Part shown: positions 2,138 to 64,000 of the stretch, piece after piece
Layout: the number at the start of each line of letters is the position of its first letter
How positions within the stretch are numbered: the first letter of the stretch is position 1
Source of the DNA: Malania oleifera
Lineage: Eukaryota > Streptophyta > Magnoliopsida > Santalales > Ximeniaceae
Length of the DNA stretch: 64,000 nucleotides
Direction: 5' to 3'
Assembly: GCF_029873635.1 (NCBI RefSeq)
Contig: NC_080417.1
Location: 34,894,214 to 34,958,213, forward strand
The notes under the pieces: model-generated
What the model was told of the DNA's origin: nothing
The model's input: only the letters and a program-made list of their open reading frames with translations
The model's database searches: none
Program-made: the position numbers and the translations under genes

Positions 2138-3487
2138 TGTTACACAAGAGGGGGGGTGAATTGGGTGATTAAAAATTTAAGCTAACACTTAAAATATTTT
2201 TTACCACAATATAAACAAGTGTTCTAAGTATGCAAAGGCTATCAATAATCACAATAAATGTACATGAATGCAAATGTGCTAAAATTAAAGAGTTAAGGGA
2301 AAAGAAAACAAAACTAAGTTTTTACAAGGTTCGACAATACTTGCCTACGTCCTTACCTTAAGAAAATTGCTTAAGGATTCCACTAACCACTCCATCAATA
2401 GGTGGAGATGCCTCACTCCTTCACTAGGCAGAGATGCCTTTACAATCCCTCCTTCACTAGGCAGAAATGCCTTTACAATCTCTCTTTCACTAGGCAGAGA
2501 TGCCTTTATAGTCCCTCAAGTGAAAATACCCCTTTCCTTTACAATCCCTAAAGTGAAAATACCCCTTTCGCTTGACACGATTTAGTCTCGAATCGTTAAT
2601 GTACAATGTGAAATCAAGATAATTGGTGTACAATGATTGCTCCTAAATTGAGTTGATAAGTATAGTGAAAAATGACACACTAATACACTCTCAAATGAAT
2701 AAGAATGAAGCTCAAAGGAGTAACTAAAGGTTCTCTAAGATTTAAAGAGCAAGAGAGAAAATGAACACTTGAATGATGAACTAAAAGAATGCGAAGTACT
2801 TGAAAATGATTTTCACTAAAGATCAAATTATTATCTTCCTTGCTAAATGATACCAATAATAATACCATACATAGAACAAGTTTAGAAGCCTTGTATTTAT
2901 AGGCAAAATTGGTTGTTGGACGAGTTTAACAATTTAATATTTTGAAAAACTAGCCATTTATAGCCATTAGGTTAATAATTCCCACAGGTTCGATCGGCTG
3001 GCCTAGAGTTCGATCACCTAAACTACTTGGAGTACCAATGCAAGACCAGTAGCAACTTGGTCAACTGAGTCCCTTGCTTCAAGCACTCGAACTACATGGA
3101 GCAGCAAAACCCTTAGTTTTTCATTCCAAAATTGATTTTAACACTGTGAAATAATTTTTACACTATTATAAAATGATTTTTCATGAAATTTAGAGTGCCT
3201 AGAGTCCAACTAAGGTCACCTATAAGTTTCATCACATTATCAAGGGTATTGTACTCACATAGGTCCTACTTGCAATATACATTAAAAAAAAATATCCAAG
3301 TCTTCAAGCTTGGTCTTTATAAACTCTATGATCATAGCTAAATAAAATCATCTTGTACACTTCATGGCTTCCAATTTGCATTTGTTATTGTACTTAAAAC
3401 CTGAATTCTTGTGAACACACTTAATAGCACAATTAGATGCCTTAATTTTTCATTATCAAAATGGGATGAAACCTTGATAGGCCAGCA
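2138..3487 (-). repeat. LTR (minus orientation), about 1.35 kb
   Basis: Read on the minus strand, it starts TGCTGGCCTATCAAGG. This is one change from the TGTTGGCCTnnnAAGG start of the LTRs at 9433 and 15084. It ends with the CCCAATTCACCCCCCC block and ...GTAACA. The conserved U5 stem-loop motif lies at 2322-2352. A 33-bp tandem repeat (tcactaggcagagatgcc...) occurs three times at about 2421-2519. The flanks (CAAGT on the left, GAGTG on the right) do not match. It may therefore be one LTR of a deleted element rather than a clean solo LTR. The right end is the less certain boundary. Confidence 0.55.
2421..2519. repeat. 33-bp tandem repeat, three copies, inside the LTR
   Basis: The phrase TCACTAGGCAG recurs at 2421, 2454 and 2487, a strict 33-bp period, each followed by AGATGCC or AAATGCC. 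A diverged half unit (ATAGGTGGAGATGCC) precedes it. The short ORF over this region is a by-product of the repeat. Confidence 0.8.
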
Positions 3488-4369
3488 GAGTGCATTGTTG
3501 GGGTTCCATCAGAGGAAGAAGGCCAGTGATGAGAGTTCACAAGGTAAAGGGCTTGTGATGAAGCGGAACTAGGATTGTTGGAGAAGCAAGTTCTGGAATG
3601 GACCAAGAAACAACAAGGCTCGGTCCAATTTTAGGAAGGGGAAGGACGTGCAGTGTTTTAAGTGCAGGAAAATGAGGCACATAAACCTCGATTGTCCGGA
3701 AAGGAAGAAGGGAAATACTGAAAATAAAGAGGGTTCATCAAACATGGCGAATGTAGCAGAAGAAGGAGACTCAGGGAGTGGTGATGGTGATATGCTTTTG
3801 ATTTTATCTGGTTAAGATGGTATCATGGATTCTTGGATCTTAGATTCAGCTTGCTCGTATCACATGATGCCTAAAAAAGACTGGTTCACCACTTACAGGT
3901 TGGTAAATTTAAGGTACCGATTTGATGGGGAATGATGTTTCATGCAAAATTGTCAGGATAGGGAATATCAGAATCAAAATTTTTGATGGTGTAGTGAGGC
4001 CGTTATATGAGGTTAGACACATACCAAAATTAAGAAAGAATTTGATTTCATTAGACACTTTAGACTATAACGGGTTTAGTTACAAGTCTAAAAGTGGAGT
4101 AATGAAGGTGAGTAAGCGTGCTCTGACTATGATAAAGGGGCAAAAAGTACCAGGGAATATATACACACTATTGGGTACTACAGTTGTAGGTAAAGCTACA
4201 GCGTAGAGTCTGAGTAGGATGATATGACCTTGTCGCATATGTAGTTACGAGAATATGGGTGAGTGTGGAATGATGGAGTTTCATAATAGAAATCTTCTGA
4301 AACGGGTCAAATTATGTAAGTTGAGTTTTTGCAGGTTTTGTGTTCTGGGAAAACAAAACAAGGTGTAGT
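3488..4369 (+). pseudogene. Copia retrotransposon A, left part: gag end, protease, pre-integrase
   Basis: This is the 5' remnant of a Ty1/copia (Tork/Tnt1-like) polyprotein. A CCHC zinc knuckle of the gag nucleocapsid is at about 3654-3695 (C-x2-C-x4-H-x4-C). The aspartic protease has a DSWILDSACSYHM-type motif near 3825-3865, with DSA where DSG is usual. The segment 3922-4206 matches the copia stretch between protease and integrase (NLISLDTLDYNG, KVSKRA). Stops interrupt it at about 3814, 3930 and 4204. The reading stops in the FCVLGKQ-type motif before integrase because a chromovirus inserted here. The frame resumes at 17275. The 5' LTR and most of gag are not recognisable. The element is dead. 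Confidence 0.8.
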
Positions 4370-6287
4370 TGTCACGCCCCGAACCCAGAAATGGAACCTA
4401 GGAGTGATAATGTAATCTAACCCATCTCTGTATCCAACAAAATCATCCAAAGATACAGAACAATGAATGAGGGTCCAACCCCGTGGGGTTCCCAGGCACC
4501 CTATACACATTCATATACAACAGAATATATGCAGTGGAAGAAGGTCATTCTATACATAATTGGTACCATACCAGAGTCTATACAATAGGAGTCCAAGCTC
4601 CATAGCATAAAACATAACCCAGTTATCAACCATACTTCATTCTATACATAATTGGTACCATACCAGAGTCTATACAATAGGAATCCAAGCTCCATAGCAT
4701 AAAACATAACCTGGTTATCAACCATACTCCAAAATGACAACTCGAGAACAAAAGTCCTAGCACTTACCCAAGCGCTATCCGCGGTACACCGACCACTATG
4801 CTCCTACACCAAGAAGCTAGATCCGGTTACCCGAAGGACCTAAAAATATGTACGTACAGCAGGGGTGAGACACCTTTTCATAAGGAAGAATATAGGTTAT
4901 ATCGGTGTGTGGCATTCGAGTGTTATCATGATACACAACACATACACAGTTAAATGCAGTTCCAGTACTAGTTTCACAATAGTACACACAACACACACAC
5001 ACATGATCAAGCAACCCAGTGTCGTCACACCCTTTGGCACGAAGTTGACCTGTGATACCCAGTGTCAGCCCGTAGCTGACCCACGATACATGGCGTCCTT
5101 GGTACATGGCTAGTCCCAGACTCGCATGGCATTGACCGGTACAAACTAGTGGATCCACACCCTTCGATGATTAGCCAGTAAGGCTCACGCCCTTGGATAT
5201 AGAGTTGGACACTCTTGCCAAACATGGTCTAGCGATTTCATACGCCCATGGATATAGAGCCGGACACTCTCAGTACCTGGAACAACTCAGAACCCAGTTC
5301 CAATTGCATTCCACAAAACACAACTATGCATGCTCATATAACCAAACATACCACACCCATTTAGTAATCTAAAATCATGGTTTTCCAAACATATACAGTT
5401 TAAATAAAGTCAAGACATGACCTTCCCTATTACACAGTATAAATCACCATATACATACGATTTTCAACAAAACCAATGATGCAACCCAATTCCCCCTTTT
5501 TCCAAAAATTGTAACATGAAAAACCCATAATTTTACTCGTCAGATCCCCCCAAATAAGTAACTAAAACACACACAGGACCGTGAACCACAGTTCTATTGA
5601 GTCCGATTTCAAAAATAACCGACATAAACTGAATCTTGTTACCTTTTCCCCAAATGGCAAATTCCGAACTGCAAGGCCCCTAAATAGCGAACCGAGTTCC
5701 AAAACCTACAACATATAGTATAAAATATACTCACGACTCCATTCTCTACAAAATTACTGGAACAAAAATGAAAACCGAGCCTTACCTAGATTTTATGCCT
5801 AAACACGAAAATACCCAAACCGAAAATCCGATCCGTAGAACTTATAGAGAATCCTTTCATGATCCTTGTGGTAACCTCAGATTAACGATTCTCATGATGA
5901 ACGGTGAAGAAATCTAAAGAGATAGAGAGTCGACTGAGTTTCTAGAGAGATAGAGAGAGAAAATGATATTTCTTAGCTGAGAAGAAATGAAAATATCTAT
6001 TTATAGTACCCTTAACTCAGCTGTTCTCCTCGACGAATTATGTCCTCGTTGACGAGGCCTTATAGTCTTCTCGTCGACGAGACCATAACCTCGTTGACGA
6101 GCCTGAGATTTCTAGATTTCCAAAACCCCTCGACTTCTCCTCGTCGATGAACCCCTGATACTCGTCGCCGAGTATCCTTAAGACTTCATCGAGGAACTTT
6201 AGATTCGTCGACGAGGCCTGCTTAATTTACCTTCTTACCCCTCATTTAATTAATTAAAACCCACCTATCACGAATCAAGTTCTTACA
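4370..6287 (-). repeat. Chromovirus 3' LTR
   Basis: On the minus strand it reads TGTAAGAAC...GGGGCGTGACA. It is about 1918 bp and matches 13640-17274 after removal of the solo LTR there. Two differences add length compared with its partner. One is a 92-bp tandem duplication at 4546-4729. The other is an extra copy of an 'acgccc-ggatatagag-ggacactct' segment near 5180-5270. It holds about nine copies of a TCGTCGACGA-like word at about 6025-6215 in the presumed U3. Confidence 0.88.
4546..4729. repeat. 92-bp tandem duplication in the chromovirus 3' LTR
   Basis: The segment starting CATTCTATACATAATTGG at 4546 is repeated at 4638 with few changes. The partner LTR (from about 13816) has one copy, so the duplication arose after insertion or the partner lost a copy. 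Confidence 0.85.
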
Positions 6288-6330
6288 ATCTCCTCTCCTT
6301 ACAAAAATTTTGTCCTCAAAATTTGTCATC
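6288..6330 (-). promoter_or_regulatory. Polypurine tract and upstream conserved box of the chromovirus
   Basis: On the minus strand the LTR start TGTAAGAAC is preceded directly by AAGGAGAGGAGAT, the polypurine tract that primes plus-strand DNA. Before it stands a GAGGACAAAATTTTTG phrase typical of plant chromoviruses. It fixes the internal edge of the 3' LTR. Confidence 0.85.
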
Positions 6331-6554
6331 TCTCATTCACAAAATCAACATATCAGCAAATACATACACGCAATTCTAGAAAGAAACTGGTGACTACTAC
6401 AACACAACCCCATCACAATAGATACATACCCTCACTTATGGCGAAGGAATACCGTGGTTATATATACAACCGTCTCAAGAATTCACAATAACATACACTC
6501 CCATGACTAACCACCTATCCCAACCCAAAGTAAAGAAATGTACATATACTTAGA

Positions 6555-9432: not shown

Positions 9433-11733
9433 TGTTGGCCTTATAAGGCTTAACATCTTATTTTGATGCTAACAAACAAGTGGATCTTAACATACTATGT
9501 TAAGTGATGTATGTTCAGGACAAAATGAAGAATGCAAGGTTAAAGAGTTCATGAGAGCTTGTACCTTAGATGAGGATGATTATATCAAGCTTGAAGCATG
9601 GATTTAAAGTTTAAAGCCTGAAGATCATTAGAGCATTGATATTAAAGAAATAGTTTCAAAGAATGAAAGCCCAAGTCATCAACATGGAAAGCTCAAAAAA
9701 AGATGAAACAAGTATAAAGGCCTCAAGGAATTCAAGAATTGAAAAAGTCTAGGATATTTCATGTAAGTACTTTAAAGAATTTCAATATGGATGCATGAAA
9801 CTCTTAGGTAAATTTATTGGACCTAGATACCTTTGAAAATACTTGGAAAATATTTTTATAACATCAAAAATTGTTTCAAAAAGGTTAGAATCAGTTTTGG
9901 AATGAAAAGCACCAAAAAGAGGATTTCTCAAATGCTATCAATTTTTCTACATCTGCATTGATATACATTTTTCTCCATAAAAAAATCCTTATTTTAAAAT
10001 GTGTTCAACATTAAAGTATTAGTATTTTCTCTTATATTTCATTTGACACCAATATCAACAAATTTGGAGTTATACAGATAAAGTTATGATCAAAATACTG
10101 AAGGGTGCTCAAAGTTGATGGCATGACAGACGACTGCCAGTGCACTTTGAGACATCTGTGTGGGTTTGGATAAATGACTGCCACCTTTCTGCCCCTTTAA
10201 TTTAACTAGATAGATGACTGCCCAAAATGGACAGTCTACTGCCACGCGGCTGTTTTGAATTTTTCATAACGGTCATATTTTTTGAATGGGGTTGTTTAAG
10301 GCTCAAAAATTATGGAAACTTAGGGAATACTTCAAGCCACTTGGGGATCAAGTTATACACTTTTTAAAGTCTATAAATAAGCCTCAAAGATCATTGAATC
10401 AACACACCAAGAATTCAAATTCTGAAAAAATTCAAAGTCTATCTCAAATTGCTCTCAAATTCTCAAGGCTCTCTCTTGCTCTCAAGCTCACATATTGTGC
10501 ACGAATTCAACTGAGTTGTTGCTGATCTTCTTCTACTGAATTGTGCTACAAATTCTAAATCTTTCAATCATTGAAAGAATTAATCGGTGATATACTTTAT
10601 TGAGCTTCAAGTTCTATTCCATATTGTCATTTACTTTGAAGTATATTAGTTGTGCTATAATTGGTGTACTAACCAACTCTTTGAGAAGCAAGTTCTTTGT
10701 ACGCATCTATTTGATTTGTATCTTGTAGATTGATGATTCCAAGGGTTGTTTGGATTGTTGGCTAAGTAAGGGGATATTGCTTAGAGAGGCAGGTCCTAGC
10801 CTAGTTAAGGAGTGACCGGACGAGAGGATATCATTTGGAGAAGGCGGGCTCTAGCCTTACCCAAGGAGTGTTGTAAAGGTTTGTTCCGCCCTTTAAAGGA
10901 ATAGGTTTAGTGAATCCTTTGGTGGTTTGCCAAAGGCGAGGACGTAGGCTGGGTAAAAGCCGAACCTCGTAAAAATCTTCGTGTCACTCTTTCTTTCCCT
11001 ACTCTTTATTTTCAGTACATATTTAAATTACGTGGATGGTTTAAATTAAAAATCAAATATACTACACATATTTGGAAATCAAATAAACTTAAAGTTTAAT
11101 TTTGATTTGGGTTGCGGAAACTGAAAGGGAGCACATTGGTTAAACCATATCTTGCGGAAACCATATAGGAGTACGTTTCTTGGTTAAACACTCAAAGATA
11201 AATTAGCTGAAAGTTTATTTGAGTTTTGAATATTTGGAAAGAGTGATTGAATGTTATATTAAACATCATATTAAGCAAATCCATATATACAGGGCTTGAT
11301 TCAAATTTATATTTAGGGCTGACAACAAAAGCTTTATTGTGTTTGTGAAAGGATTATTGAATATTAAATTACATTCTTCACAAGGTTTTCAAATTCATAA
11401 TCACAAGGCTTATATAAACAAACAAACTATCTCAAGATTTTATATTACCAAAGTGCTAAATACTTTATATCTTGGTTTGGTTGTTTGTTGTTTAACTTGT
11501 ACTTGGCAAACAAATTGATTGTTTGGCTTGAAGATTGTGTTTAATTGATTGGTTGTTTAATTGTGTTATTGATTGAATAAAAGAACTAAGTTCTTGTTTG
11601 ATTAAATAATTAAACAAACAAGTCAAGAATTGGTTAAAATAAATAAAAGAAGTTTAAGGTATCTTAAAAGGAACTAAAAGAAATTTTTAGAATCCAATTC
11701 ACCCCCCCTCTTGGGAAGCTATTCCTAATTTCA
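9433..11733 (+). mobile_element. Solo LTR (2.3 kb) inserted between chromovirus protease and RT
   Basis: It starts TGTTGGCCTTATAAGG and continues with the LTR-like phrase TTATTTTGATGCTAACAAAC. It ends CTCTTGGGAAGCTATTCCTAATTTCA. The chromovirus reading frame stops at one edge and resumes at the other, which confirms the insertion. The left 5 bp are TCACT. The right side keeps only an eroded remnant (ATT before AACTACCC). The conserved U5 stem-loop motif is at 10940-10973. A run of GACTGCC-containing words is at about 10128-10245. No polyprotein lies inside. It is the same family as 15084-16947. Confidence 0.85.
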
Positions 11734-11736
11734 ATT

Positions 11737-13639: not shown

Positions 13640-16600
13640 TGTCACACCCCGAACCCAGAAATGGAACCCAAGGCTGATAATGTAATCTAACCTGTCTCTG
13701 TATCCAACAAAATCATCCAAAGATACAGTATAATGAATGAGGGTCCGACACCGTGGGGTTCCTAGGTAACCTATACACATTCATATATAGCTGAATATAT
13801 GCAGCGAAAAAAGGTCATTATATACATAATTGGTACCATACCAGAGTCTATACAATAGGAGTCCAAGCTCCATAGCACAAAACATAACTCGGTTATCAAC
13901 CATACTCCAAAATGACAACCCGAGAACAAAAGTCCTAGCACTTACCCAAGCACTATCTGTGGTATACCGACCATTACGCTCCTACACCAAGAAGCTAGCT
14001 CCGGTTACCCAAAGGACTTGAAAATATGTACGTACAGCAAGGGTGAGACACCTCTCAGCAAGGAAGAATACAAGTTATATCTTTGTGTGGTATTCTAGTG
14101 TTATCATTATACACAACACATACACAATTAAATGCAGTTCTAGTACTAGTTTCACAACAGTGCACTCAACACACACACACATGATCAAGCAACCCGGTGT
14201 CATCACACCTTTCCGAAGCTAGCTTGTGATACCCGGCGTCAGCCCGTAGTTGACCCACGATACACGACGTCCCCAGTACATGGCTTGTCCCAGACTCCCA
14301 TGGCATCGACCGGTACAAACTGGTAGATCCACACTCTTCGGTAATCAGCTAGTAAGGCTTACGCCCTCAGATATAGAGTCAGACACTCTCAGTACCTGGA
14401 ACAACTCAGAACCTAGTTCCAATTGCATTCCACAAAACACAACTAGGCATGCTCATATAACCAAACATACCACACCCATTTGGTAATCTAAAATCATGAT
14501 TTTCTAAACATATACAGTTTAAATAAAGTCAAGGCACGACCATCCCTATTACACAGTATAAATCACCATATGCATATGGTTTTCAACAAAACCAGGGATG
14601 CAACCCAATACCCTGTTTTTCCCAAAATTGTAACATGAAAAACCCATAATTTTACCCATTAGATCCCCCCAAATGAGTTACCAAAACGCACACAGGACCA
14701 TGAAGCATAGTTCTACTGAGTCCGATTTAAAAAATAACCGACATAAACTGAATCCCCTTACCTTTTCCCCAAATGGCAAATCCCAAACTCCAAGGCCCCT
14801 AAACAGTGAATCGAATTCCAAAACCTACAACATATAGTACAGAATATAGTCACGACTCCATTCTCTACAAAACTACTGGAACAAAAATGAAAATCGAGCC
14901 TTACCTTGATTTTACGCCAAAACACGAAAATACCCAAACTGAAAATCCGATTAGTAGAACTTGTAGAGAATCCTTCCACAATCCTTGTGGTAACCTCGGA
15001 TTAACAATTCTCGTGACGAACGGCAAAGAAATCTAGAAAGATGGAGAGCAGGTTAGGTTTCTAAAGAGATAAAGAGAGAAAATTGAAATTAGGAATAGCT
15101 TCCCAAGAGGGGAGTGAATTGGAATCTTTTTATATTTTGATGATTTTTAATATTTTTCTTAAGATACTAAAGAAAGCACAACAAATAATTTATAAGCACA
15201 CTTTAGAATACTTATAATTTAAATGAATAAGACAATCAATAAAGCTAAAATAATTCAATCATTCAATCAAGGATAATTTTGCTTTTTTTGATTTCCCTGT
15301 GAATGTTTATCACCTTCTTTAAATTAACTTTTAGTATGTGCTTCTCTTGATTAAGATTTTTGCAGATTAACCAACGTACTCCCTTTTGAGTTTCCGCAAA
15401 CGGTTAATCGAACCATACTTTCTAAATACCAAGAGTCTTTATTTCTTTCTCTTTGAAACTTGTTACCTACGCTTTGAAATCACACAACACAGCAAGTATA
15501 GTATATAAAATAGAGAGAAAGACACAAGATTTTTTACGAGGTTCGTCTTCAACACAGCCTACGTCCTCGCCCTTGGAAAAATACCAAAGGTTTCCACTAT
15601 AGCAGTTCCGTTACTGGGTGGAACAACGCCTGTTTACAACCACTCCTTTGGTCAAGGCTAGAGCCTGCCTTCTCTAAATAATATGCCCTTGTTTGGTCAA
15701 CGTTCCAACAGTCTGGAATCGTCCAAAATCTACAAGAGAAATATTAAAATCTAGTGTACAAGAGAAGCTCACACAAAGAGCAGATTAGTACAAATCAAAA
15801 CTATGTACTTCAAAAGATAAAATATCAAGAATGAAATAAAATTTTGAAACTTTTCAAAGAATTCACCAAAATCCTTTTCTCCAGATGAGAAATCAGTAAT
15901 TCTTCAGGATTTGATGAACAAAAGATCAGAACAACAATACTTTCAGCTTTGCAAGAGATTGAGTAAAAGAGATTTTGAGAGCAAGAGAGCTTTGAGAGAA
16001 TTTCAATGCTTGGGATCAATTTTTGATTCATAAGAACCATGTATTTATAGGCTTCCAAGTAGGTTTCCTTGTTGCAAGAGTTTCCTTAAAAAGTTTCCCA
16101 AGTTGTTAGAAAATTTGGGTTTCAAACGGCTATAATTTAAAAATAAGAGTTTTAAAATTTTTGCCCGTTGAACAGTGTTCAGACGTCTGAAGTGTCGAGG
16201 TTAGTTATATGAAGTTCCTTAAACCTTTTAAAAATAGAACTGGATACAGGGTCAGATGTCTGAAATTAGAGTTCAGACGTCTGATGTCGTAGGTTCAGAT
16301 GTCTGAAGTCGCAAGTTCAGACGTCTGAACTACTACTAGAACTCTCTGTCTTGTTCTGTAAATTCTTCAGATGTCTGTACTTAATCTTCAGACGTCTAAA
16401 GTAATTCTTCAGATGTCTGAACTTAAAGTTTAGTCATTTGAAGTCTCTACTTCAGTCATTTGAACTGAAAAATTCAGTCATCTGAGCTTTTAAAAATCTA
16501 TTTTATGAAATATCTTTCTTTAAAAACTGTTTTGCTCTCACATGATCTTTATAAAAACTTAATTAAATATATTTAAATATGTCTTTAAATCTTTATAATC

Positions 16601-17274
16601 TCTTAGAAAAAACTTCAAACTATATTTCAAAGATATTTTGCCTTTTGAAATACTTACAAATATGTTTCCTAAGCCTTCATGCTTGAGTTCTCTTTGCTCT
16701 TAAGATTCTTTGAACAATTTGCTTGAGCTTCAAATATGTTAGACCCTCTTTGGATCATTGAGAAGTTATCTTCATACTTGACTTATAGTTATTCTTCACT
16801 TAAACCATACTTGAGCTATATTTGAGCTTTGCTTTGAACCACACTTGATCCGTATTTCCTGAAACACCAAAACTCAACCTTTTTCAAGTTAAATCATCCT
16901 TTGTTTGTTATCACCAAAACCAATTGAGAGACCTTGTTAGGCCAACAAAAATGAGATTTCTTAGCTGAGAAGTAATGAAAATATCTATTTATAATACCCT
17001 TAACTTAGCTGTTCTCGTCGACGAATTGCGTCCTCGTCGACGAGGCCTTATAGTCTTCTCATTGACAAGACCATGACCTCGTCGATGAGCTTGAGATTTC
17101 TGGATTTCTGAACCCCTCGGCTTCTCCTCGTTGACGAACCGCTAAAACTCATCATTGAGTATCCTTAAGACTTTCTCGAAGAACTTTGGATTCGTCGATG
17201 AGGCCTGCTTAATTTACCTTTTTGCTCCTCATTTAATTAATTAAAACCCACCTATCATGATTCGGGTTCTTAAA
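13640..17274 (-). repeat. Chromovirus 5' LTR, split by a solo LTR
   Basis: It matches 4370-6287 over its whole length once 15084-16952 is removed (about 1.77 kb of LTR). The outer end reads GTTCTTAAA where the partner has GTTCTTACA. The copies of the TCGTCGACGA-like word lie at about 17015-17205. Confidence 0.87.
15084..16947 (-). mobile_element. Solo LTR (1.86 kb), minus orientation, inside the chromovirus 5' LTR
   Basis: It is flanked by a perfect 5-bp duplication AAAAT (15079-15083 and 16948-16952). The uninterrupted sequence survives in the other chromovirus LTR near 5955, so the insertion is certain. On the minus strand it reads TGTTGGCC...CCTAATTTCA, the same family as 9433-11733. The conserved U5 stem-loop is at 15533-15566. 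An array of TTCAGACGTCTGAA-like palindromes is at about 16180-16490. No internal coding region is present. Confidence 0.92.
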
Positions 17275-19821: not shown

Positions 19822-20517
19822 TGTTGGAGTCTATGGCTTATAGTGACTGGAATAAATGCTCGGGGAAAACATGGTAAAACAAAGAACAAGGAAGTAGGCT
19901 GTAGGAAGAAACCATCGACTGTTTAGTCGACGGTTTGCTCTCGATAGTTAATCGTCGACGATTTCTGGCCATCGGCGGTTTTAGTCTATAGGATTCAACC
20001 TCAGTATTAAACTATCAACAGTTGTGCTGAAACTGTTGACGGTATTGTTCGGCGCTAAACACGGATTTTGAATCGGGACGATCGAAAAATTGGAGAATTC
20101 AGAGGTTTTTCCTCCAGGGTTTGCTATAGGAGTACTTTAGATAATTTTTAAGCCCTATATATGCATAGGGTTAGCATATAAACAATATATGTAACCATTG
20201 ATGTAAGTTTTTTTTTTATGAATGATAGTGAAAATCAACCGCTTGCTTTTGTGGATATAGGCATATTGTCAAACCACGTAAATTCTTGAGTCGTATGTTT
20301 TATTGTTTGGTTAATTATGTCTTTGTGATTGTGTTTCCATATATTCATCGTTGGTTACTTGAATTGCATGATCCGATTCGATTTGTGGTTTTCGCTGTGC
20401 ATTGACATTCAACACTTTGCACAACATCAACTTTTCTTTTGCCTAAAGTTTTGTGTAAAATTTTTGTAAGGTCATTCATATTAATAATTATTTAGATTCT
20501 AACTTTGATTTCCAACA
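19822..20517 (+). repeat. Copia A 3' LTR, directly upstream of the Tm-1-like gene
   Basis: It starts TGTTGGAGTC after the polypurine tract and ends TTTCCAACA, giving 696 bp with inverted TGTTGGA/TCCAACA ends. The presumed U3 has TCGACGG/ATCGTCGACGAT-like words at 19915-20050. The conserved U5 stem-loop is at 20253-20282. It lies in the same orientation as the gene that begins at 21158, with 640 bp between. The 5' LTR partner was not found in the window. Confidence 0.82.
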
Positions 20518-25856: not shown

Positions 25857-28715
25857 TTCTTTGTCTCTTTGCTGATAACCAAACATGAAAAGTGGATTTC
25901 TTCATTTTTTTTTTTTCTTAATATTTTCTGAGTTCCTAACTGAGCCTTACAAGCTTGCCTCTACGGAGGAGAAAATGAGGGATTTACCATGTTGACTACC
26001 CTGTAATTAATATACCCTTTTTATATGTATTTGTCAGAAACTTTGCAAAGAACACAGGCAATATTGCAGCAACTGAAAGATCAAATAAGTAAAGGGAGGC
26101 CTATAATAGGAGCTGGTGCAGGGACTGGCATATCAGCAAAGTTTGAGGAAGCTGGTGGTGTGGATTTGGTAGTCATATATAACTCAGGGCGCTTTCGAAT
26201 GGCAGGAAGGGGTTCATTAGCAGGCTTATTACCTTTTGCTGATGCAAATGCAGTAGTTCTTGAAATGGCCAATGAGGTGTTGCCTGTAAGTTTAAACTTC
26301 TAGCTTGTTTGACATTTCTTTAGATGGAGAGTTTATTGATTAAACAAATAACTAATTTGGTTCTCAATCCGGATTAATGACATTCTATTTCTAGTTTGTT
26401 TACTTTAAATAGGCTGGGGTAGATTCACTTCCACAATATGACCAATTGAAAATTGTAATTTTTCCTTAAGCAAAGCTGTTATAAAAACCTTAATGATCAA
26501 TTTTCAATTACCATATCATTTGATCCATTATAGGTGCTTCCTGACCATTTTGGTCTAAAGTTAGTAATTTGCTATCTTTTGCAATCTTTTGTCATGGTTA
26601 TTCCAAAAAGCTGTGACAGGATCAATGAAGCAATTTGATGCATACCTATGTTTGGTTTGTTGTTCAAATTTAATATGACTGGAAAAAGGAGGCAGAATGA
26701 GAATATTGCTGTTCTTTGCTTTACAGTTCTGCTTCATTTTCTCATATATTTTTTATTTTCACCTATTACAGTTATTAGAAGAAACGTGTGTGTCATGTGT
26801 ATGACCTAGGATTATGCACAAATACATACAAAGCAAATCAAAAGTAAAACGAAGGAGAGAACACAGCAATTTTCATGGTTCGGCAGTAAGATTACGACCA
26901 TGGAGCCCCTGCAAATAGCAATAAAAATATAGTCCCCTTGGCTACAAATGTAAATAGCCCCACATGAAACCTCAAAAATATTTTTATATTACAATAAAAT
27001 GACACTATTTCCTGGTTCAAAATGCCATACACTGTCCTCCCCCGGCTTCATCCCCCAATACACCAGTAGGCTGGCCTCTTCAAATGCAAAATGGAGCCAC
27101 TAAACACTGATTTTCAAGTGGATCACTTCTTCAAATATGCCCACAACTCAACAAGTTGTTATGGTCTAAATTTTTCGGGACTTTGTGAAACACTACTAAT
27201 TGCTACACATTATTTAAGCTGTGCAGGTGGTGAAAGGAGTACCGGTTCTTGCTGGAGTATGCGCAACTGACCCTTTCCGTCAGATGCATTACTTTTTAAA
27301 GCAGTTGGAGTCAATTGGATTCTCTGGTGTGCAAAATTTTCCAACTGTCGGTCTCTTTGATGGCAATTTTAGAAAAAATTTGGAAGAGACTGGGATGGGA
27401 TATGGGTATGTCTTAGATTCACAAATTTTCTGATTGCTTTTGAATTTTCATGCTTCATTAAATCTGTTATTTTCCTGTGTCTTGCTTAGCTTGGAGGTTG
27501 ACATGATTGGAAAAGCACATAGAATGGGTCTTTTGACAACCCCTTATGCTTTTAACTGTGATGAAGCTATTGGAATGGCAAAAGCTGGGGCTGACATCAT
27601 AGTGGCACATATGGGCCTCACGACATCTGGGTCAATTGGTGCAAAAACAGCTGTTTCATTGGAGGAAAGTGCTGTGTGTGTTCAAGCTATTGCAGATGCA
27701 GCACATAGGATCAATCCTGGCGTAATTGTGCTCTGCCATGGAGGTAATCTAGGAAATCTTTTGTTCTCTGCTATAATGTTACTGGGGCCTGCTTGTCATT
27801 AAGAATCTTATCATTGGCTTAATTTGATGGATGCTATTGAGAAAAAGTGGCTAATTCTACAAGCTTGAATGATATCAAGGATCGTGCATATTCTTTTCTT
27901 GGACATTCATCTGAGCCTTCTTCCAATGATTGGTTCAGATGCTCAGCATCATTATCGATACTTTTGCTGTAGAATTGTAGATGCTATTGGTTTGAAAATT
28001 TCCTGTTTTCATATATTTTTTAACTACATGCGTTGCATTGCCCTTTGTTCCTTCAAGAAATTTCTGTGCGCGCCATATGCTTCTCAAAAAATTGTTGTAT
28101 CTATTGTGCAGCATTTCTGCTATATGTTCATTTCTAGTTTTTACCTTAGCCAGGCCCAAACACTTATCCACTTTAATTTTTCACCTTATTATCCATAATA
28201 TTTAGAAATTTTTATCATGTTACTTGACAGTTAGATTTCATTTTAATTTTTTTTTTTTAAAAGAAGAGTTTTCCTTTTACTTCATTTTGTTTGCCCCATG
28301 CCTTCAACTAGTCAAGCACTTCCCTGTCTTCCTCAATCCAACACCTAGATTTAATCTTATCCTCACTATGTTCACTAGATTTTTGTATCTGAGATTCATT
28401 TGACATGTTATTGGTTTCTTATAAAGATATATTACGAAATATCTTAGTTGATCGCTTTCTTCTTGACCTTCAATCCATACAATGTTTTTTTCCTTTTTTT
28501 TTTTTGGGGTTTAGCTTTTGAAGAGCTAATTCTACGAAGAAGGGTCTTTGGTGTAATGTGCAGGCCCTATATCTGGTCCAAAAGAGGCAGAATTCGTATT
28601 AAAAAGAATGAAGGGAGTGCACGGATTTTATGGGGCTTCAAGCTTGGAGAGACTGCCAGTTGAACAAGCTATAACAAGCAGAGTCCAGCAATACAAATCA
28701 ATTTCCATAAAGTGA
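21158..28715 (+). CDS. Tm-1-like protein: UPF0261 domain plus TIM-barrel domain (9 exons)
   Basis: Exons: 21158-21346, 22709-23365, 24135-24341, 24650-24865, 25008-25230, 26038-26285, 27227-27405, 27490-27743 and 28564-28715 (stop TGA). Together they give 2325 nt and 774 residues. All introns are GT-AG and the phases agree. The exon 2 start could be 3 nt earlier. Residues 1 to about 480 match the UPF0261/Tm-1-like domain: [17 protein letters not shown] near the start and a glycine-rich GLGGSGGTS at about 140-148. Residues from about 498 match the TIM-barrel domain: [44 protein letters not shown] and VLCHGG. An acidic, serine-rich linker lies in exon 5. Tomato Tm-1 (about 754 residues) binds tobamovirus replication proteins and blocks viral RNA replication. 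The ancestral function of the family is unclear. Antiviral activity of this copy is not shown by sequence. Confidence 0.93.
21480..22560. repeat. Tandem segmental duplication with (TA)n inside intron 1
   Basis: A unit beginning with a (TA)n run and TTTGGTGGGGAGTTAGATCAT appears at about 21497-21806 and again at about 21807-22128. The copies are nearly identical, with single changes such as ATACCCC/ATGCCCC and ATCGCAC/ATCGTAC. The second half (TTGTTTCTGCATCT ... ATTCAGATAATTTAAG ... TATAATTTTGGTC) recurs in more diverged form at about 22268-22560. The ORFs here on both strands are repeat by-products and not exons. Confidence 0.88.
24509..24526. repeat. Poly-G run in intron 3
   Basis: An uninterrupted G run of about 18 bases. 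It is intronic and carries no splice signal. The length may be unreliable, since homopolymers are prone to sequencing error. Confidence 0.7.
25231..26037 (+). other. Intron 5 of the Tm-1-like gene, with (TA)n
   Basis: An 807-bp AT-rich intron in phase 1 with a (TA)n run at about 25811-25851. Nothing else is recognised in it. Confidence 0.75.
26815..27140 (-). repeat. LTR-like fragment in intron 6 of the Tm-1-like gene
   Basis: On the minus strand it carries the conserved U5 motif in a diverged form at 26871-26900 (CATGG...GCCGAACCATG). The surrounding GGAGCCCCTGCAAATAGC and AATAGCCCCACATG text resembles an LTR downstream region. Ends and a duplication could not be fixed. No polyprotein is near. 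A short solo LTR or TRIM-type remnant is the best guess. Confidence 0.45.
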
Positions 28716-29217: not shown

Positions 29218-29880
29218 ATGCCTTTGTTTTCGAGAGTAGTCATTGCCAAAACTGTTGATTGCGGCTCTTATACTTTAGTTTTCTTAAGCAAAGAAAGAGG
29301 AAAGAAAAACATGAAGGGGCAGCATAGTAGAAGCTTGTCGACGAATGCCCTATGTTCATCGACAAGAAGACAGCAAGAGTTCGTTGACGAATATCCTAAG
29401 TTCGTCAACGAGAAAATACCGAGAGCAGAAAAATTTCAGAGTTCTGGACTCGTTAACGAAAGTATGTTCTCGTCGACGAGTGGTCTTCTATGGATCATCG
29501 ATGAAGCCCTATACTCGTTGACAAAGGACACTTGAGTTGTGAGTTGTTTTTTTTTTTTGAATTTTTGAATTTGAACGTTGGGTGGTTGGGTAAACGGAAG
29601 GAAACCTCCGAGAGATTCTTTTATATGTCATTCTGGACATCTATTGAGTATAAGAGTGATCATTTTGAGAAGTGTATTGTATACATTGTAATTTTCATAG
29701 TGAAATTTGTGTGTTATTGTTTCCGTGAATATAGGTTTTGCCGAACCACGTAAAATCTGTTGTTCTTCTTATTTTGATTATGTTTGCATTTATTTGTTGT
29801 TTATTCTCCTGTGTTCTACTTATTTGATTCATATTAAAACAAATACCTTGGAAATTAAAATATTGAGGTACCCGCAAGCA
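29218..29880 (+). repeat. Copia LTR remnant with TCGTCGACGA words
   Basis: About nine copies of a self-complementary TCGTCGACGA-like word lie at 29335-29525. The conserved U5 stem-loop motif follows at 29727-29754 (ATATAGG...GCCGAACCACGTAAA). The arrangement copies the copia A LTR at 19822-20517. I cannot find LTR ends, a primer site or coding sequence. Short ORFs here are incidental. Confidence 0.5.
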
Positions 29881-30248: not shown

Positions 30249-30920
30249 CGAGTGTTTTCCTAGTTTATTCTTTTTTTAGAAAAATATATTAAATAATACA
30301 CTATTTTGAGAAGTGTTTCTCAGAATGACTCTGACGTAATCTCGCTAGTAGCGAGATTTGTCATGTGTCACGTCCAAAATAAACATAGGCAAATCTCGCT
30401 ACTTGTGTTGGGAATAAAGAACAAATTCTTGAAACCTGTGAGAAACAAAATAGAGGAAAAATAATATAAAAAAAAAATTAATCATACGCACAAGATAATA
30501 TTTACGTGGTTCAGCAATTTTGCCTACGTCCACGGAATTGCAGAGATTTCAATATTATCAGGAAGAAAACACAGAGAGTGCGGCGATACAATGCTCTCCC
30601 TCTCGCTCTCTCGCAGGTACAACCACACCAACCCTAATTACCCGAAAGCAATCCTTTTTATATGTTGCGCCTAGGGTTCCGTTCCAAATGGGCTCCATGG
30701 ACTAAGCCTTAGGATAGAAATCTCTAATTAAATAAAGATCGGGTCGTCATCCAAATTAAAACACAACTAGGCTCCACAAAAACCCAATAACTTGGAGTAT
30801 CGATATTTGTTTGCCACGCGTTTAGACCAGATTAGGGATGCCATTTAAATCTTGTTACTTCATGTAGCAAGATTTGTTTAAATCTCGTTACTCCAAGTAG
30901 CGAGATTTTCTGTATATAAG
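30249..30920. repeat. MULE left terminal region with AAATCTCGCTACT palindromes
   Basis: After the terminal 85 bp come imperfect palindromes of the form AATCTCGCTA-GTAGCGAGATT at about 30341-30362, 30390-30405 plus 30790-30822 (split by a solo LTR), 30847-30872 and 30874-30906. Matching palindromes lie at the right end, 41210-41425. Confidence 0.75.
30406..30789 (-). mobile_element. 384-bp solo LTR inserted in a MULE palindrome
   Basis: It is flanked by a perfect 5-bp duplication ACTTG (30401-30405 and 30790-30794). The ends are TGTTGGG and CCCAATA, the second one transition from CCCAACA. Removing it restores a palindrome CTCGCTACTTG-GAGTATCGAT-like that matches its neighbours, which confirms the insertion point. 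The conserved U5 stem-loop (30501-30531) gives minus orientation. No internal domain is present. Confidence 0.85.
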
Positions 30921-33762: not shown

Positions 33763-33908
33763 TGTTGGGATTTCTGGTGTGGAATCGTCGGCAGCAACAC
33801 CTCCCCATGCAGCTTATGTTGAAATGAAGACCAGCAGCCAGCAGCCCTCCACCTACTCTGCAGATTTTGTTGAAATCTGCAGCCATCAACTTTGAATTTA
33901 GCTCCCCT

Positions 33909-33939
<31 letters not shown>

Positions 33940-34241
33940 GTGAGAGAGCTGTGATGCAGTGTGCTGTGTGTGTGAGTGTATGGAGCTGTGAGCTGCGTGA
34001 GTATTGTATTTTGGTGTGCTGAGAGTGCAAAGAGAAGTGCAGAGAGTAAAGAGTTGTGGTGAGAGAGAGTTGAGCAGTGACTCCTCCTTGTATTATTTCT
34101 CCCAGTTTATAGTGTAATGATGTGTGCTCCAGTGGACGTAGGTCAGTTTGGACCGAACCACGTAAATCTGGTGTTCCAGTGTGGATGTGCTTTGAATTCT
34201 TCTTCGTGTGTGATTGTTGCTCCAGGTTTTATCTCCCAACA
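33763..34241 (+). repeat. Copia C 5' LTR
   Basis: TGTTGGGATTTCTGG...TCTCCCAACA. Direct partner of 36929-37434, with only scattered changes apart from the TA run. A (TA)n tract is at 33917-33938 and the conserved U5 stem-loop at 34134-34166, 75 bp before the LTR end. Confidence 0.93.
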
Positions 34242-36928: not shown

Positions 36929-37075
36929 TGTTGGGAGTTCTGGTGTGGAACCGTCGGCAGCAGCACCTCCCTATGCAGCCTATGTTGAAATGAAGACCAG
37001 CAGCCAGCAGCCCTCCACCTACTCTGCAGATTTTGTTGAAATCTGCAGCCACCACCTTTGAATTTAGCTCCCCCT

Positions 37076-37135
<60 letters not shown>

Positions 37136-37434
37136 AGAGAGTTGTGATGCAGTGTGCTGTGTGTGTGAGTGTATGGAGCTGTGAGCTGCGTGAGTATTGT
37201 ATTGCAGTGTGCTGAGAGTGCAAAGAGAAGTGCAGAAAGTAGAGAGTTGTGGTGAGAGAGAGTTGAGTAGTGGCTCCTCCTTGTATTATTTCTCCCAGTT
37301 TATAGTGCAGTGGTGTGTGCTCCCGTGGACGTAGGTCAGTTTGGACCGAACCACGTAGATCCGGTGTTCCAGTGTGGATGTGCTTTGAATTTTTCTTCAT
37401 GTGTGATTGTTGCTCCAGGTTTTATCCCCTAATA
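36929..37434 (+). repeat. Copia C 3' LTR
   Basis: Direct repeat of 33763-34241 with a longer (TA)n run at 37082-37132. The conserved U5 stem-loop at 37327-37358 has CGTGG where the 5' copy has AGTGG. Confidence 0.92.
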
Positions 37435-44571: not shown

Positions 44572-46243
44572 TGTTGAATTTTTGAGTCCTATCCTTGTTT
44601 TGATGCTGACAAAACACATGTTTCTTATGTGTGTTTTTGGCATGTGAACAGGTCCATTAATTTAATACACACATAAGGAAAAGGCGATGGAACTTTGTAG
44701 GACTTAAAACCTATATGATTAGGTGCATTCCATGAAGTTAGAAGAGTGAAGAAGAAGACATATTTGATTTAATTTGTATATGCATTTAGGTTTTTATATT
44801 TTGGCCTGTAATAAATGCATACATCATGCATTATATGACTTAATGCTCAGATAGGCCATAGATAGACCTTATAACAGACTTTGGTTGACCTTCAGTTGAC
44901 CGACGTTGAGTTTTTGGGCTTAATTAAAAAGTCTAGGCCATAGAATGACAATAGGAACGATGACCCTTACACTTGAATGCCACATGCCTTTTCACCGGTT
45001 CTCCCCACGGCCAATCAAACCCAATTTTGGCCAAGAGTCTGTTCAATCAACTGATCCTATGAACCGGTCGACCGAACCTCTCGGGTTGCAGTATGTTTAA
45101 ATGCTAAAATGGGTTCAAAAATTAATTAAGCTTTTTTTAATAATATTTAGCATGTCCCCAATGGTAAAAAATCTCCCAATCCTTTATATATACCCCTTTC
45201 ATAACTTAGATTAGTAACTTTGATTAACCAATTTTTCTCTCAAAATTATTTTCTTAATCAAAGTTCCTCCACTTACATTTTTAATTGCAAAATCATTTTG
45301 AGGTAAATTTTTACACTCTCCAACTCTCTTTATTATTCTTTGGAAAATCTTTTGAAAGAGAGTATCTTTATTTTAGGGCATTTATTTTCACATCAATGCT
45401 TTCATAGAAAAAGTTTCATGTTGCAAAAATTATTTGAAAAACCAAAGCCCTAGGTTCTCCTATTTCTCATTGAAAATATTTATGGAGAAATATTGCATAG
45501 GGTTAAGATCTTTGAGCATTTTATCATGTACATTATTTTTCAAAGATTGAAAATGTTATTTGATAGTACCCTTACTCTATTAAGCATAATGCATATCATT
45601 AGAGAGTGCATGTATTGAGCTTAAACGTGTACATATTTGCTTGTATTTTTAAAAGCATATTATGTGTACAAAAACTGTTTTCATGTATCGGTTGGGTTCA
45701 GTCTGGAATTGAGCTGGGGAGTCTCAGCCCCGTACGTAAGACCGGTTGGGTTCAGCCCGAGAAATTGAACTGGAGAGTCTTCGCGTAAGAGAAACAAGTT
45801 GGGCTCAGCCTTACAATTGAGTTGGGGTTTACCTCACCTCATAAGGAGAGGTTGTAACGGCTTCTGCTCTGCCCATTTAAGTGAGCAAGAATAGTGTAAT
45901 CCTTGGGGGGTATGCCCAAGGCGGGAATGTAGGTTGGTTTGGCTAAATCTCAATAACAAATATCATGTGTTACTCTCTTTCTATCATATTTAAATTCCCG
46001 CACTTTAATTTCCACACGTGTATGCTTGTCCATATTTATTGTCATAACAATTTGCATACATCCATTTAATTTAAATAAGATACTACAAATGTGTGTGCTT
46101 GTTTTCACTGCTTAAATTATTTTACATACACATGTACATTTTGAATGAAATATGACATGTGGTGAATCAGCAAAAGTTTAAATTAGTCAAAAAGTTTTTA
46201 AAAGCCAATTCACTCCCCTCTTGGGATCAAACTAATTCCAACA
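44572..46243 (+). repeat. LTR (1.67 kb) of a mostly non-coding element
   Basis: It starts TGTTGAATTTTTGAG, has a TTGTTTTGATGCTGACAAAAC phrase typical of this LTR group at about 44594, the AATTCACTCCCCTCTTGGG block near 46208, and ends TAATTCCAACA. A diverged form of the U5 motif is at 45924-45953. The word GGTCGACCGAACC is near 45067. The next bases, AGTTAGTATTGGAGTC, look like a decayed tRNA-Met primer site. The matching 3' LTR was not found before 62732. Confidence 0.7.
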
Positions 46244-59424: not shown

Positions 59425-59659
59425 AGAGAAAGATAAATATAACAAGGATGATGATATGCTTGCATTTTTTATTTTCTATGATCGGAGACGTAGTTAGGGG
59501 CGGCGATGATGGTTTTCCAGGAGGGTGGCGACGGAGTAATGGAGTGGGACGGTGGGAATGGTGGGAGGAGCAGAATGAAAGTTGGGGAAAGAAGAGATCG
59601 CGCAAGGGAGAAAGAGGCGGGAGGAGAAAGAAGAAATTTGGGGAAAGTTTGAGAATTTA

Positions 59660-62731: not shown

Positions 62732-64000
62732 TGTTAGAATTGGTGTATTCCCAAGAGGGGGGTGAATTGGAATTTTAAACTTTTCTCCTAAGTTGAACTA
62801 GATGTTAGCAGAATATTACAACCTAGGGTTTTTCTATGCAGTTCCAAATACGCCAATAAATATAATATATAGAAATTTACATCAAGTGCATCATTCACAT
62901 AATAACATACACATGCGGTAAATATAAAGTGCAAAAATATAAACAAACACATGATATGTTATCGGGGTTCGGCTAATTGTGCCTATGTCCCCACCTCTAA
63001 CTCGCAAGTCTGAGGTTTTCACTAATAGCTTACTTAAGGGTGGAGCAACATCGATTACAACCAGGTCAATTAGCACAGGGCTGACCTCAACCTTAACCTG
63101 GTCAATTAGTGGGGTTGACCTCAACCTACACGCCTTAATAGGATGGCGCACCTAGCTTTCCTAACAAGGTCTAAGCCAAGCCGGGACTATTTTAAAGAGC
63201 TAGTCTCCCTTTTCAGGACCGTGCTTGGAAATACAACAGTATTCACAATATGATAGGTATGGTGATTGTGCTTTTCAAGTAAAGCAAATATGTACCCAAA
63301 TATGTACAGTATACTCAATCAACCACACATAAACAATGTAGGTAAATGTAAGCTTAGTGATATGTATTTTTGTGCAAGCTACACTCAACAAGATATGATC
63401 GTTAACATGCTCAAAATTTTTCTAATTAAGCTATTTCTTTGAAACAGAATATATCAAGTCTCAATAATAATCAAGGTTTCAAAGATGCTGCAAATATTCA
63501 AAACAAGTCAAAATAATTTCTTCAATAATATATGCTCAAGAGTTGCTTGAAGGAATACTATAGCTTGTAGAAAAATATTTTTGCACAACAAAATCACGCT
63601 ATTGGACACTTGCAATAATAATGCAAATATCCTCAAGCCTATGAGTTTATCCCAACACAAGATTTACTATATTCAAATCTATGAGATAAACTTTGGTAAA
63701 CTCCCCAAAATAATATCAAACAATCAAGCAAAGTAAGGGAGTATTAGCACCCTCTAATAAACACTAGCCCCCTCAATATGCTCTCACACTATTAAAATGT
63801 ATCAAGGAAATAAAGATATGAGAGTACTTGGACATGAATAGGAATTTGAGATAGAGAGGATTTTGTAAATGATTTTCTACTAATCTTATATTAATCCTCA
63901 CAAATGAACTCATATTTATAGACCAAGGTAAAACTATAACCGTTTAGGACATAGCGGTTATAATTAGAATTGTTTTAAAACCAATTAAGAAAATTAACCC
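62732..64000 (-). repeat. LTR, minus orientation, cut by the window end
   Basis: On the minus strand it ends CCAATTCACCCCCCTCTTGGG...CCAATTCTAACA at 62732. The conserved U5 stem-loop is at 62959-62990, with GGGG/CCCC as outer stem. GGTCAATTAG...TGACCTCAACC repeats lie at about 63063-63130. No primer site is seen to its left, which suggests a solo LTR, but the far end is outside the window. Confidence 0.65.

What the first reader, a model, noticed from the sequence alone, without database searches (positions are those of the whole stretch)
2322..62990. A stem-loop motif with compensatory changes shared by about nine different LTRs
Ten clear sites, written in sense orientation, fit NNGG-ACGTA-GGC-loop-GCC-GAA-CCN'N', mostly followed by GTAAA. 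Sites: 2322-2352 (-), 10940-10973 (+), 15533-15566 (-), 20253-20282 (+), 26871-26900 (-), 29727-29754 (+), 30501-30531 (-), 34134-34166 (+), 37327-37358 (+) and 62959-62990 (-). Weaker ones are at 45924 and 47797. The LTRs around them are otherwise dissimilar. The outer stem varies but stays paired: AAGG/CCTT at 2322, CGAGG/CCTCG at 10940 and 15533, GTGG/CCAC at 20253 and 34134, CGTGG/CCACG at 30501 and 37327, GGGG/CCCC at 62959, CATGG/CCATG at 26871. The inner stem also covaries: GGC/GCC, GGTC/GACC at 34134, GGCAA/TTGTC at 2322. This supports a conserved RNA structure in U5, the 5' leader of the element RNA. A role in packaging, priming or translation is inference. I cannot tell whether it is already described.
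Basis: partly seen in the sequence, partly recalled or inferred. Interest (0 to 1): 0.85.

Follow-up and report, generated by a model that had tools for sequence, protein, structure and literature searches.

The report
Shared RNA hairpin in plant retrotransposons
Otherwise unlike plant Copia-type retrotransposon repeats in this window carry the same small hairpin, with paired changes that keep it able to fold, so it is probably a working control element of their RNA that I could not find described.

Summary
All ten strong sites are present and their outer stems can pair (one mismatch each at 29727 and 34134). Nine are independent: 34134 and 37327 are two LTRs of one element. Weak site 45924 is a decayed true copy; 47797 is false, outside its LTR. 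The outer stem covaries between families (0 of 500 shuffles as high for pairing or covariation score; swap test p 0.00015 on nine families), but hardly within either group of LTRs. Models trained on one group recover the other.

New here: (1) Five sites lie upstream of a Sirevirus-type poly-C signal; the others do not, so two kinds of LTR share the hairpin. (2) Those five carry a second covarying hairpin just upstream. (3) A box like TAGTGAAAT and a TGTA lie at near-fixed distances upstream, each in 9 of 10 sites. (4) The internal loop (UA opposite [G/A]AA) resembles the loop E/sarcin-ricin motif. (5) Four of 14 published Citrus LTR primer pairs contain the motif.

The hairpin lies in the last quarter of two complete LTRs, so it is probably transcribed; R or U5 is unmapped. 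Function is inferred: most likely a protein-binding module at the poly(A)/R-U5 region; packaging is the main rival.

The parts
2321..2355 (-). P2 hairpin (the finding), Sirevirus-type LTR
   Evidence: 45.5 bits with model R1; stated fold is the MFE
2356..2376 (-). P1 hairpin upstream of P2
   Evidence: alignment A4 and pair counts
2377..2385 (-). upstream box TAGTGGAAT
10937..10973 (+). P2 hairpin, Sirevirus-type LTR
   Evidence: 40.9 bits; stated fold is the MFE
10916..10936 (+). P1 hairpin
15533..15569 (-). P2 hairpin, inside a solo Sirevirus-type LTR
   Evidence: 42.7 bits; MFE keeps the outer stem, not the inner one
15570..15590 (-). P1 hairpin
15084..16947 (-). solo Sirevirus-type LTR, 1864 bp, 5-bp target duplication AAAAT, nested in a Gypsy LTR
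   Evidence: poly-C signal at 15102, 18 nt from the LTR end
20250..20282 (+). P2 hairpin, no poly-C signal nearby
   Evidence: 42.0 bits; found by the Sirevirus-only model at E 1.2e-4
26870..26902 (-). P2 hairpin, most diverged of the ten (outer stem CATGG/CCATG; inner stem not formed)
   Evidence: 36.1 bits; found by the Sirevirus-only model at E 0.063
29724..29754 (+). P2 hairpin, no poly-C signal nearby
   Evidence: 40.4 bits; Sirevirus-only model E 0.0096; MFE is another fold
30501..30534 (-). P2 hairpin, no poly-C signal nearby
   Evidence: 48.6 bits; Sirevirus-only model E 9.8e-7
34131..34166 (+). P2 hairpin in the 5' LTR of a Copia element
   Evidence: 41.6 bits; Sirevirus-only model E 1.2e-4; MFE is another fold
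37324..37359 (+). P2 hairpin in the 3' LTR of the same element
   Evidence: 37.6 bits, not used in building R1; stated fold is the MFE
33763..34241 (+). 5' LTR (479 bp) of the Copia element, followed by PBS TGGTATCAGAGC at 34244
36929..37432 (+). 3' LTR of the same element (end decayed)
62959..62993 (-). P2 hairpin, Sirevirus-type LTR
   Evidence: 39.9 bits; stated fold is the MFE
62994..63015 (-). P1 hairpin
45922..45956 (+). decayed P2 hairpin, Sirevirus-type LTR
   Evidence: 16.8 bits, E 0.067; context
45901..45921 (+). P1 hairpin
46205..46225 (+). poly-C signal of the 45924 LTR; further copies start at 342 and 11694 (+) and 62750, 15102 and 2143 (-)

Best explanation
The sites are one conserved RNA module in the downstream part of the LTRs of Ty1/copia elements. 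Its core is a hairpin (P2): a 5-bp outer stem that varies but stays paired, an asymmetric internal loop (consensus ACGUA opposite GAA), a short inner stem, and an apical loop free in length and sequence. The invariant part, UA opposite [G/A]AA, is what a loop E/sarcin-ricin (bulged-G) fold would require, so P2 most likely presents a rigid protein-binding surface. Upstream at near-fixed distance lie a box like UAGUGAAAU and a UGUA, while the distance to the LTR end varies widely. UGUA plus an A-rich element is the recalled layout of plant poly(A) signals. I therefore think it most likely that the module sits at the 3'-end-formation/R-U5 region, that in the 3' LTR it helps set or regulate the cleavage site, and that the same hairpin is carried in the 5' leader of the genomic RNA. 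Shown: sequence, pairing changes between families, fixed spacing to box and TGTA, place in the last quarter of two complete LTRs. Inferred: transcription, the loop E fold, protein binding, the role in 3'-end formation.
For: P2: 92.1% of 63 cells paired, 6 double-change cells; pairing, double-change cells and covariation score reached by 0 of 500 shuffles. Own against swapped strands of the outer stem: 43 of 45 pairs, p 0.00015 (nine families); 47 of 50, p 2e-5 with 45924; p 0.00064 without 45924 and 15533; p 0.0049 also without 62959. By my count the two double-change pairs need at least four events (no tree made): pair 2 G-C to A-U in 2322 and in 26871; pair 3 U-A, A-U and G-C. Cross-group models: R2, built from 4 Sirevirus-type sites, ranks the 6 other sites (5 independent) directly after its training sites, E 9.8e-7 to 0.063, then 45924 (0.70), first non-site E 2.1; R3, built from 5 other sites, finds the 4 strong Sirevirus-type sites at E 5.6e-6 to 4.2e-4, then the false hit 39386 (0.11), with 45924 at 1.9. 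Box within -36..-12 in 9 of 10 and TGTA within -76..-38 in 9 of 10, each reached in 0 of 20000 samplings of neighbouring places (intervals set after seeing the data). Flanks from -200 to -45 are 39% alike on average (ten sites, maximum 61%), the motif 71% (nine sites). Internal loop: UA 10 of 10, last AA 10 of 10. In the complete LTRs the hairpin starts 1378 nt into 1864 and 371 nt into 479. Citrus: 4 of 14 LTR primer pairs hold parts of the motif, two of them both inner-stem strands with different loops.
Against: Covariation inside each group is weak: swap test p 0.079 (4 Sirevirus-type), 0.031 (with 45924), 0.20 (5 others); shuffles 24 and 204 of 500. In one search the number of pairs with double changes (228 of 500) and of pair types (270 of 500) is not special. 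Folding energies are unremarkable (z -0.1 to -2.4, 45924 +0.7) and the MFE is another fold at 26871, 29727 and 34134. The TATA evidence is thin: TATAWA lies within 1000 nt upstream of 5 of 5 Sirevirus-type sites, but 75% of random places have one too; within 230 nt of 4 of 5 others against 29%. ACGUA has one base more than the AGUA strand of the loop E motif, and the bulge position is A in 3 of 10. No transcript, poly(A) site or protein was seen; the box is not AAUAAA. Benachenhou et al. put a very short R beside the TATA box in Sire LTRs (passages), which would place this module in U5, away from the poly(A) site.
Confidence: 0.4

Rival explanations
1. Packaging/replication signal: the hairpin is in the 5' leader of the genomic RNA and is bound by the element's Gag or another replication protein to select RNA for particles, as retroviral leader stem-loops do.
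For: It lies 77 nt before the PBS in the Copia element. Shared across divergent elements as a trans-recognised site would be. The BARE paper PMC3735527 (passage read) says BARE2, which cannot make its own Gag, keeps conserved dimerisation and packaging signals; it does not name this hairpin in the passages seen.
Against: Spacing to the LTR end varies (75 nt at 34134, 449 nt at 15533), while spacing to TGTA and box is near constant. Apical loops are not conserved; 3 of 9 hold a 4-nt palindrome, none a longer one, against a kissing-loop dimer site.
Confidence: 0.3
2. Translation control or RNA stability element of the 5' untranslated leader (for example a host protein that binds loop E folds).
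For: Loop E-like internal loop; probable position in the leader.
Against: No relation to a start codon was tested; nothing ties it to one.
Confidence: 0.13
3. DNA-level element: an inverted-repeat transcription factor site (ACGT cores) in the LTR; pairing reflects a dimeric site, not RNA.
For: ACGT occurs on both arms in several copies, and at 34134 the MFE pairs these ACGTs. The sense-strand wobble bias is small (6 G-U, 2 A-C).
Against: Outer-stem bases differ between families while pairing is kept; the conserved ACGTA and GAA parts are not complementary to each other; loop length varies 3-9 nt.
Confidence: 0.1
4. Only shared descent: remnant identity among related LTRs with no constraint on structure.
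For: Within-group covariation is weak; only nine independent LTRs.
Against: Flanks are 39% identical while the motif keeps 71%; double changes occur in both groups; P1 covaries.
Confidence: 0.07

Closest known systems
Sirevirus LTR motifs of Bousios et al. 2010 (PMC2829016; abstract and sections 9, 11, 12, 13 read)
   Same: Conserved non-coding motifs in Copia LTRs; a C-rich signal near the LTR end as they describe is present in five LTRs here.
   Different: Their repeated motifs are CGG-CCG palindromes in many copies upstream of the TATA box; this hairpin is single, near the 3' part of the LTR, differently built and shared with LTRs lacking the C-rich signal. It is not described in the sections read.
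LTR profile models of Benachenhou et al. 2013 (PMC3601003; 12 of 26 passages read)
   Same: Looked for conserved features in plant Copia LTRs (Retrofit, Sire).
   Different: They report TATATA, a CAA-type poly(A) motif and terminal repeats; this hairpin is not in the passages read.
Loop E / sarcin-ricin (bulged-G) RNA motif of 5S rRNA, 23-28S rRNA and viroids (recalled; no paper read on it)
   Same: AGUA/GAA-type asymmetric internal loop between two short helices.
   Different: Here the longer strand is ACGUA with C/U and G/A variation; no structural data.
HIV-1 poly(A) hairpin (PMC2645353, start of abstract seen in a search listing only)
   Same: Hairpin in the terminal-repeat transcript next to the poly(A) region.
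   Different: No sequence relation; in HIV the hairpin holds AAUAAA itself, here the A-rich box is upstream of the hairpin.
Cassandra TRIM LTRs with 5S-like sequence (passage in PMC12786077)
   Same: A structured RNA within plant LTRs.
   Different: 5S-like sequence and Pol III transcription; here the window had no Rfam hit at gathering scores and none overlapping these sites among 55 hits at E up to 10.

Membership tests
Ty1/copia LTR retrotransposon (element 33763-37432) | paired LTRs, PBS for initiator Met tRNA, copia-type gag/pol | tested here: met
   LTRs about 90% identical, PBS TGGTATCAGAGC, Pfam Retrotran_gag_2 3e-23, gag_pre-integrs 3e-10, RVT_2 5e-9; pol is incomplete
Sirevirus LTR (sites 2322, 10940, 15533, 62959, 45924) | C-rich integrase signal about 21 bp before the LTR end | tested here: met
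   CCAATTCACCCCCCTCTTGGG-like signal downstream of 5 of 5 on the same strand, 18 nt before the end of the one LTR bounded by a target duplication; query letters came from the window, the paper's consensus is in a figure not seen
Sirevirus LTR (same sites) | CGG-CCG repeated motifs and multiple PPTs | not tested
   no full-length element examined
Sirevirus (element 33763-37432, site 34134) | C-rich integrase signal | tested here: not met
   none in its complete LTR; yet its LTR/PBS junction CA-ATTGG-TATCAGAGC equals the Sirevirus junction given by Bousios, so its lineage is open
Sirevirus (sites 20253, 26871, 29727, 30501) | C-rich integrase signal | tested here: inconclusive
   none nearby, but their LTR ends were not fixed and may be lost
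Loop E / sarcin-ricin motif | UA opposite GAA with bulged G | tested here: inconclusive
   UA 10/10, last AA 10/10, G/A 8/2 at the sheared position, G 7/10 at the bulge, one extra base in strand 1
Loop E / sarcin-ricin motif | non-canonical pairs in a solved or probed structure | not testable with these tools
   no RNA 3D tool or probing data
Retroviral-type dimer initiation stem-loop | palindromic apical loop of 6 nt or more | tested here: not met
   no palindrome over 4 nt in 9 loops
Known Rfam RNA family | covariance model match at gathering score | tested here: not met
   0 matches in the window
Plant poly(A) signal region | UGUA-type far-upstream and A-rich near-upstream elements before a mapped cleavage site | tested here: inconclusive
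   TGTA and box in place in 9 of 10 each; no cleavage site mapped

The most novel reading that the evidence does not exclude
An ancient RNA family, present before Sireviruses split from other plant Copia lineages, whose loop E-like hairpin is read by one host or element protein that ties 3'-end formation of the element RNA to its entry into replication; Sireviruses added a second hairpin to it.
Probability: 0.22. Interest if true: 0.82.

Novelty: new variant of a known kind. Interest (0 to 1): 0.6.

Why it matters
The LTRs compared here are close to unalignable outside the motif (39% identity). A shared hairpin with compensated changes in two kinds of Copia LTR would give a handle on cis-acting RNA signals of plant LTR retrotransposons; a 2025 review of their life cycle has no occurrence of hairpin, stem-loop, secondary structure or dimeri- in its main text. 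It can be turned into a model for finding and orienting Copia LTRs and solo LTRs, and into a defined target for probing, pull-down and mutational tests.

Tried and rejected
A closing helix joining the upstream box region and the GUAAA side looked good in some MFE folds but failed a swap test over ten sites (own -3.8, cross -4.1 kcal/mol, p 0.67); dropped. A third hairpin further upstream in the five Sirevirus-type LTRs is 84% paired but not better than shuffles (110 of 500); unproven. Kissing-loop dimerisation: loops not palindromic. Kink-turn and tetraloop-receptor readings of the internal loop were set aside from recall; no call. tRNA-primer pairing beyond the PBS was not tested.

Relatives outside the window: core patterns gave 47 loci (4 viral contigs; 43 genome contigs; context printed) and 32 loci; one search found none. 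I take them as chance matches in bacterial and phage DNA from titles, composition and missing outer stems; I did not annotate them. Model R1 on the first 47 gave 5 hits at E up to 0.1, best 28.5 bits in L007, higher than decayed site 45924 and preselected by the pattern; on the next 32 it gave 19 hits at E up to 1, best 23.8 bits. A pol-region frame of the second Copia element (no Pfam match; RNase H-like by recall) found no relative in viral contigs. No plant collection is held, so Citrus primers in a paper are the only outside evidence.

Literature: ten searches were answered; two found nothing. No listed title or abstract start describes this hairpin, but one search listed 20 of 368 papers and one search listed 15 of 389, and most subscription journals are not held. 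Passages of PMC10760457, PMC3362945 (a reference entry only) and PMC4032725 concern other things; Bousios et al. 2016 is not held.

Errors of mine, mended: site 45924 was typed in a shifted register, which made the outer-stem wobble count 5 G-U to 1 A-C; one search gives 3 to 1 without it and 6 to 2 for all seven pairs of nine families. An earlier count said 6 to 1 and is wrong. A chance control for TATA boxes was added and weakens that argument; odds of the best reading and of the novel case were lowered slightly and those of the DNA and descent rivals raised.
Full report
Observation. All ten strong sites exist at the given coordinates. The whole motif is specific: a covariance model from nine sites (34 positions, 7 pairs) gives the ten sites 36-49 bits; then come 45924 (16.8) and 39386 (13.0, AT-rich, false). 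37327 was not in training but is the second LTR of the 34134 element.

Independence. 33763-34241 and 36929-37432 are LTRs of one Copia element with PBS at 34244 and copia-type gag, gag-pre-integrase and RT pieces. 10940 and 15533 share 79% over 189 nt; no other pair of sites is joined at the motif by a blastn match of 45 nt or more at E 1e-5. Flanks from -200 to -45 are 39% identical on average (maximum 61%), the motif 71%. So there are nine independent LTRs plus the decayed 45924.

Two kinds of LTR. Downstream of 2322, 10940, 15533, 62959 and 45924, on the same strand, lies CCAATTCACCCCCCTCTTGGG or a near copy. Bousios et al. (PMC2829016, section 13) found a C-rich signal of about 19 bp, on average 21 bp before the LTR end, in 17 Sireviruses; their letters are in a figure I could not see, so the match is to the description. 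A sixth copy at 342 has its LTR mostly outside the window. One such LTR is complete: 15084-16947 on the minus strand, TGTT...CA, 5-bp duplication AAAAT, inserted in a Gypsy LTR, signal 18 nt from its end. The other five independent sites have no such signal near them. For 34134 the LTR is complete, so it truly lacks it; for 20253, 26871, 29727 and 30501 the LTR ends are not fixed. Against a clean split: the 34134 element's junction CA-ATTGG-TATCAGAGC is the one Bousios gives for Sireviruses, so its lineage is open. A further Copia element (LTR 116 bp at 47897-48012 and 51647-51762, PBS at 48013) has no R1 hit in its LTRs: the hairpin is not universal in Copia. The Gypsy element around 4367-17272 has no R1 hit in its LTRs better than E 5.

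Structure of P2. Outer stem: 5 pairs, 95.6% of cells paired; pair 2 GC 7/AU 2, pair 3 UA 5/AU 3/GC 1. Whole structure against 500 shuffles: pairing, double-change cells and covariation score 0 of 500; number of double-change pairs 228 and pair types 270 of 500, that is, not special. Slid partners give at most 44% paired against 92%. Swap test on the outer stem: p 0.00015 for nine families, 0.00064 without 15533, 0.0049 without 62959 as well; within groups 0.079 or 0.031 and 0.20. So the signal is mostly between groups and events are few; I count at least four. In 25 distinct matches to the core from viral contigs the three outer pairs form 25 of 75 times, all three in 1; in the nine families 26 of 27, all three in 8 (Fisher p 4e-6), with the caveat that the families were picked for pairing. 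Sense-strand G-U against A-C cells: 6 to 2, a thin sign for RNA. The inner stem is weaker: 83% paired, one-sided changes only. Single-sequence energies are modest and the stated fold is the MFE in 6 of 11 sites.

Internal loop. Strand 1 is ACGTA (5), ATATA (2), TCGTA, ACATA, ATGTA; strand 2 GAA (8) or AAA (2). UA and the last two A are invariant. From established knowledge (recalled) the bulged-G/loop E motif is AGUA/GAA: U pairs with the middle A, the last A with G, G is bulged. The match is in the right places but strand 1 has one more base, so I call it loop E-like, not a member.

Context found here. (a) Box TAGTGAAAT (2 changes allowed) at -36..-12 in 9 of 10; (b) TGTA at -76..-38 in 9 of 10; neighbouring places give means of 0.44 and 1.6 of 10 and never 9 in 20000 (intervals chosen after looking). 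26871 lacks the box, 2322 lacks TGTA in the interval. (c) In the five Sirevirus-type sites a 7-bp hairpin P1 lies between box and P2, with UA, AU and GC exchanged at one position and double changes at four of seven (slid partners at most 66% paired against 97%); loops vary.

Position in the element. P2 starts 1378 nt into the 1864-nt solo LTR and 371 nt into the 479-nt LTR, in the last quarter of both; Bousios puts the Sirevirus TATA box near the middle. TATAWA lies upstream of 9 of 10 sites, nearest at -76 to -930, but this is weak: 75% of random places have one within 1000 nt and 29% within 230 nt. So P2 is probably, not certainly, in the RNA. Distance to the LTR end is 75 nt at 34134 and 449 nt at 15533; spacing to TGTA and box is near constant. 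That is why I prefer a role at the poly(A)/R-U5 region over one tied to the PBS; but no transcript end is known here, and the published estimate of a short R beside the TATA box in Sire LTRs speaks for U5.

Outside evidence. A Citrus marker paper (PMC7876178, one passage read) lists 14 LTR primer pairs; four contain pieces of this motif: GACGTAGGCTAAAAGCCGAACCA, GTAGGCGGGGATTGCCGAACCA, AGGTTGGCCGAACCACGTAA and CGAACCACGTAAAAATCCGCGTG. The passage lists them as primers only. The window's own plant is not known to me, so I cannot say that Citrus is another genus.

Known or new. No Rfam match. No title or abstract start that my ten searches listed describes it (limits under tried and rejected). 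I rate it a new variant of a known kind: a structured cis-acting RNA element in a retroelement's terminal repeat, with its own consensus, shared across two kinds of LTR. Interest 0.60: surprising for LTR specialists and directly testable, but function is unproven and the case rests on nine LTRs of one window plus primers.

Noticed in passing
4367-17272: Ty3/Gypsy element on the minus strand (RVT_1, Retrotrans_gag) whose LTR is split by a solo Sirevirus-type LTR at 15084-16947; the 10940 LTR also lies within it.
   Followed up: partly
47897-51762: Copia element with very short LTRs (116 bp, 95% identical), PBS at 48013, several long open frames; no R1 hit in its LTRs.
   Followed up: partly
22592-23422 and 27434-27802: Exon-like frames of a host gene: UPF0261 N- and C-terminal domains, then a phosphoenolpyruvate hydrolase-like domain; the 26871 site lies between them, perhaps in an intron.
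   Followed up: partly
55978-56120: Inverted repeat (88%) scoring below gathering for MIR7504 (E 3e-10) and MIR447; possibly a MITE. 53321-53467 is an inverted 93% relative of 56109-56255.
   Followed up: no
59614-60695: Tandem array of about 113-nt units, with similarity to 52231-52780.
   Followed up: no
41206-41412: Short inverted-repeat element (75-87%) with relatives at 30268-30342 and 30844-30907, on either side of the 30501 site.
   Followed up: no
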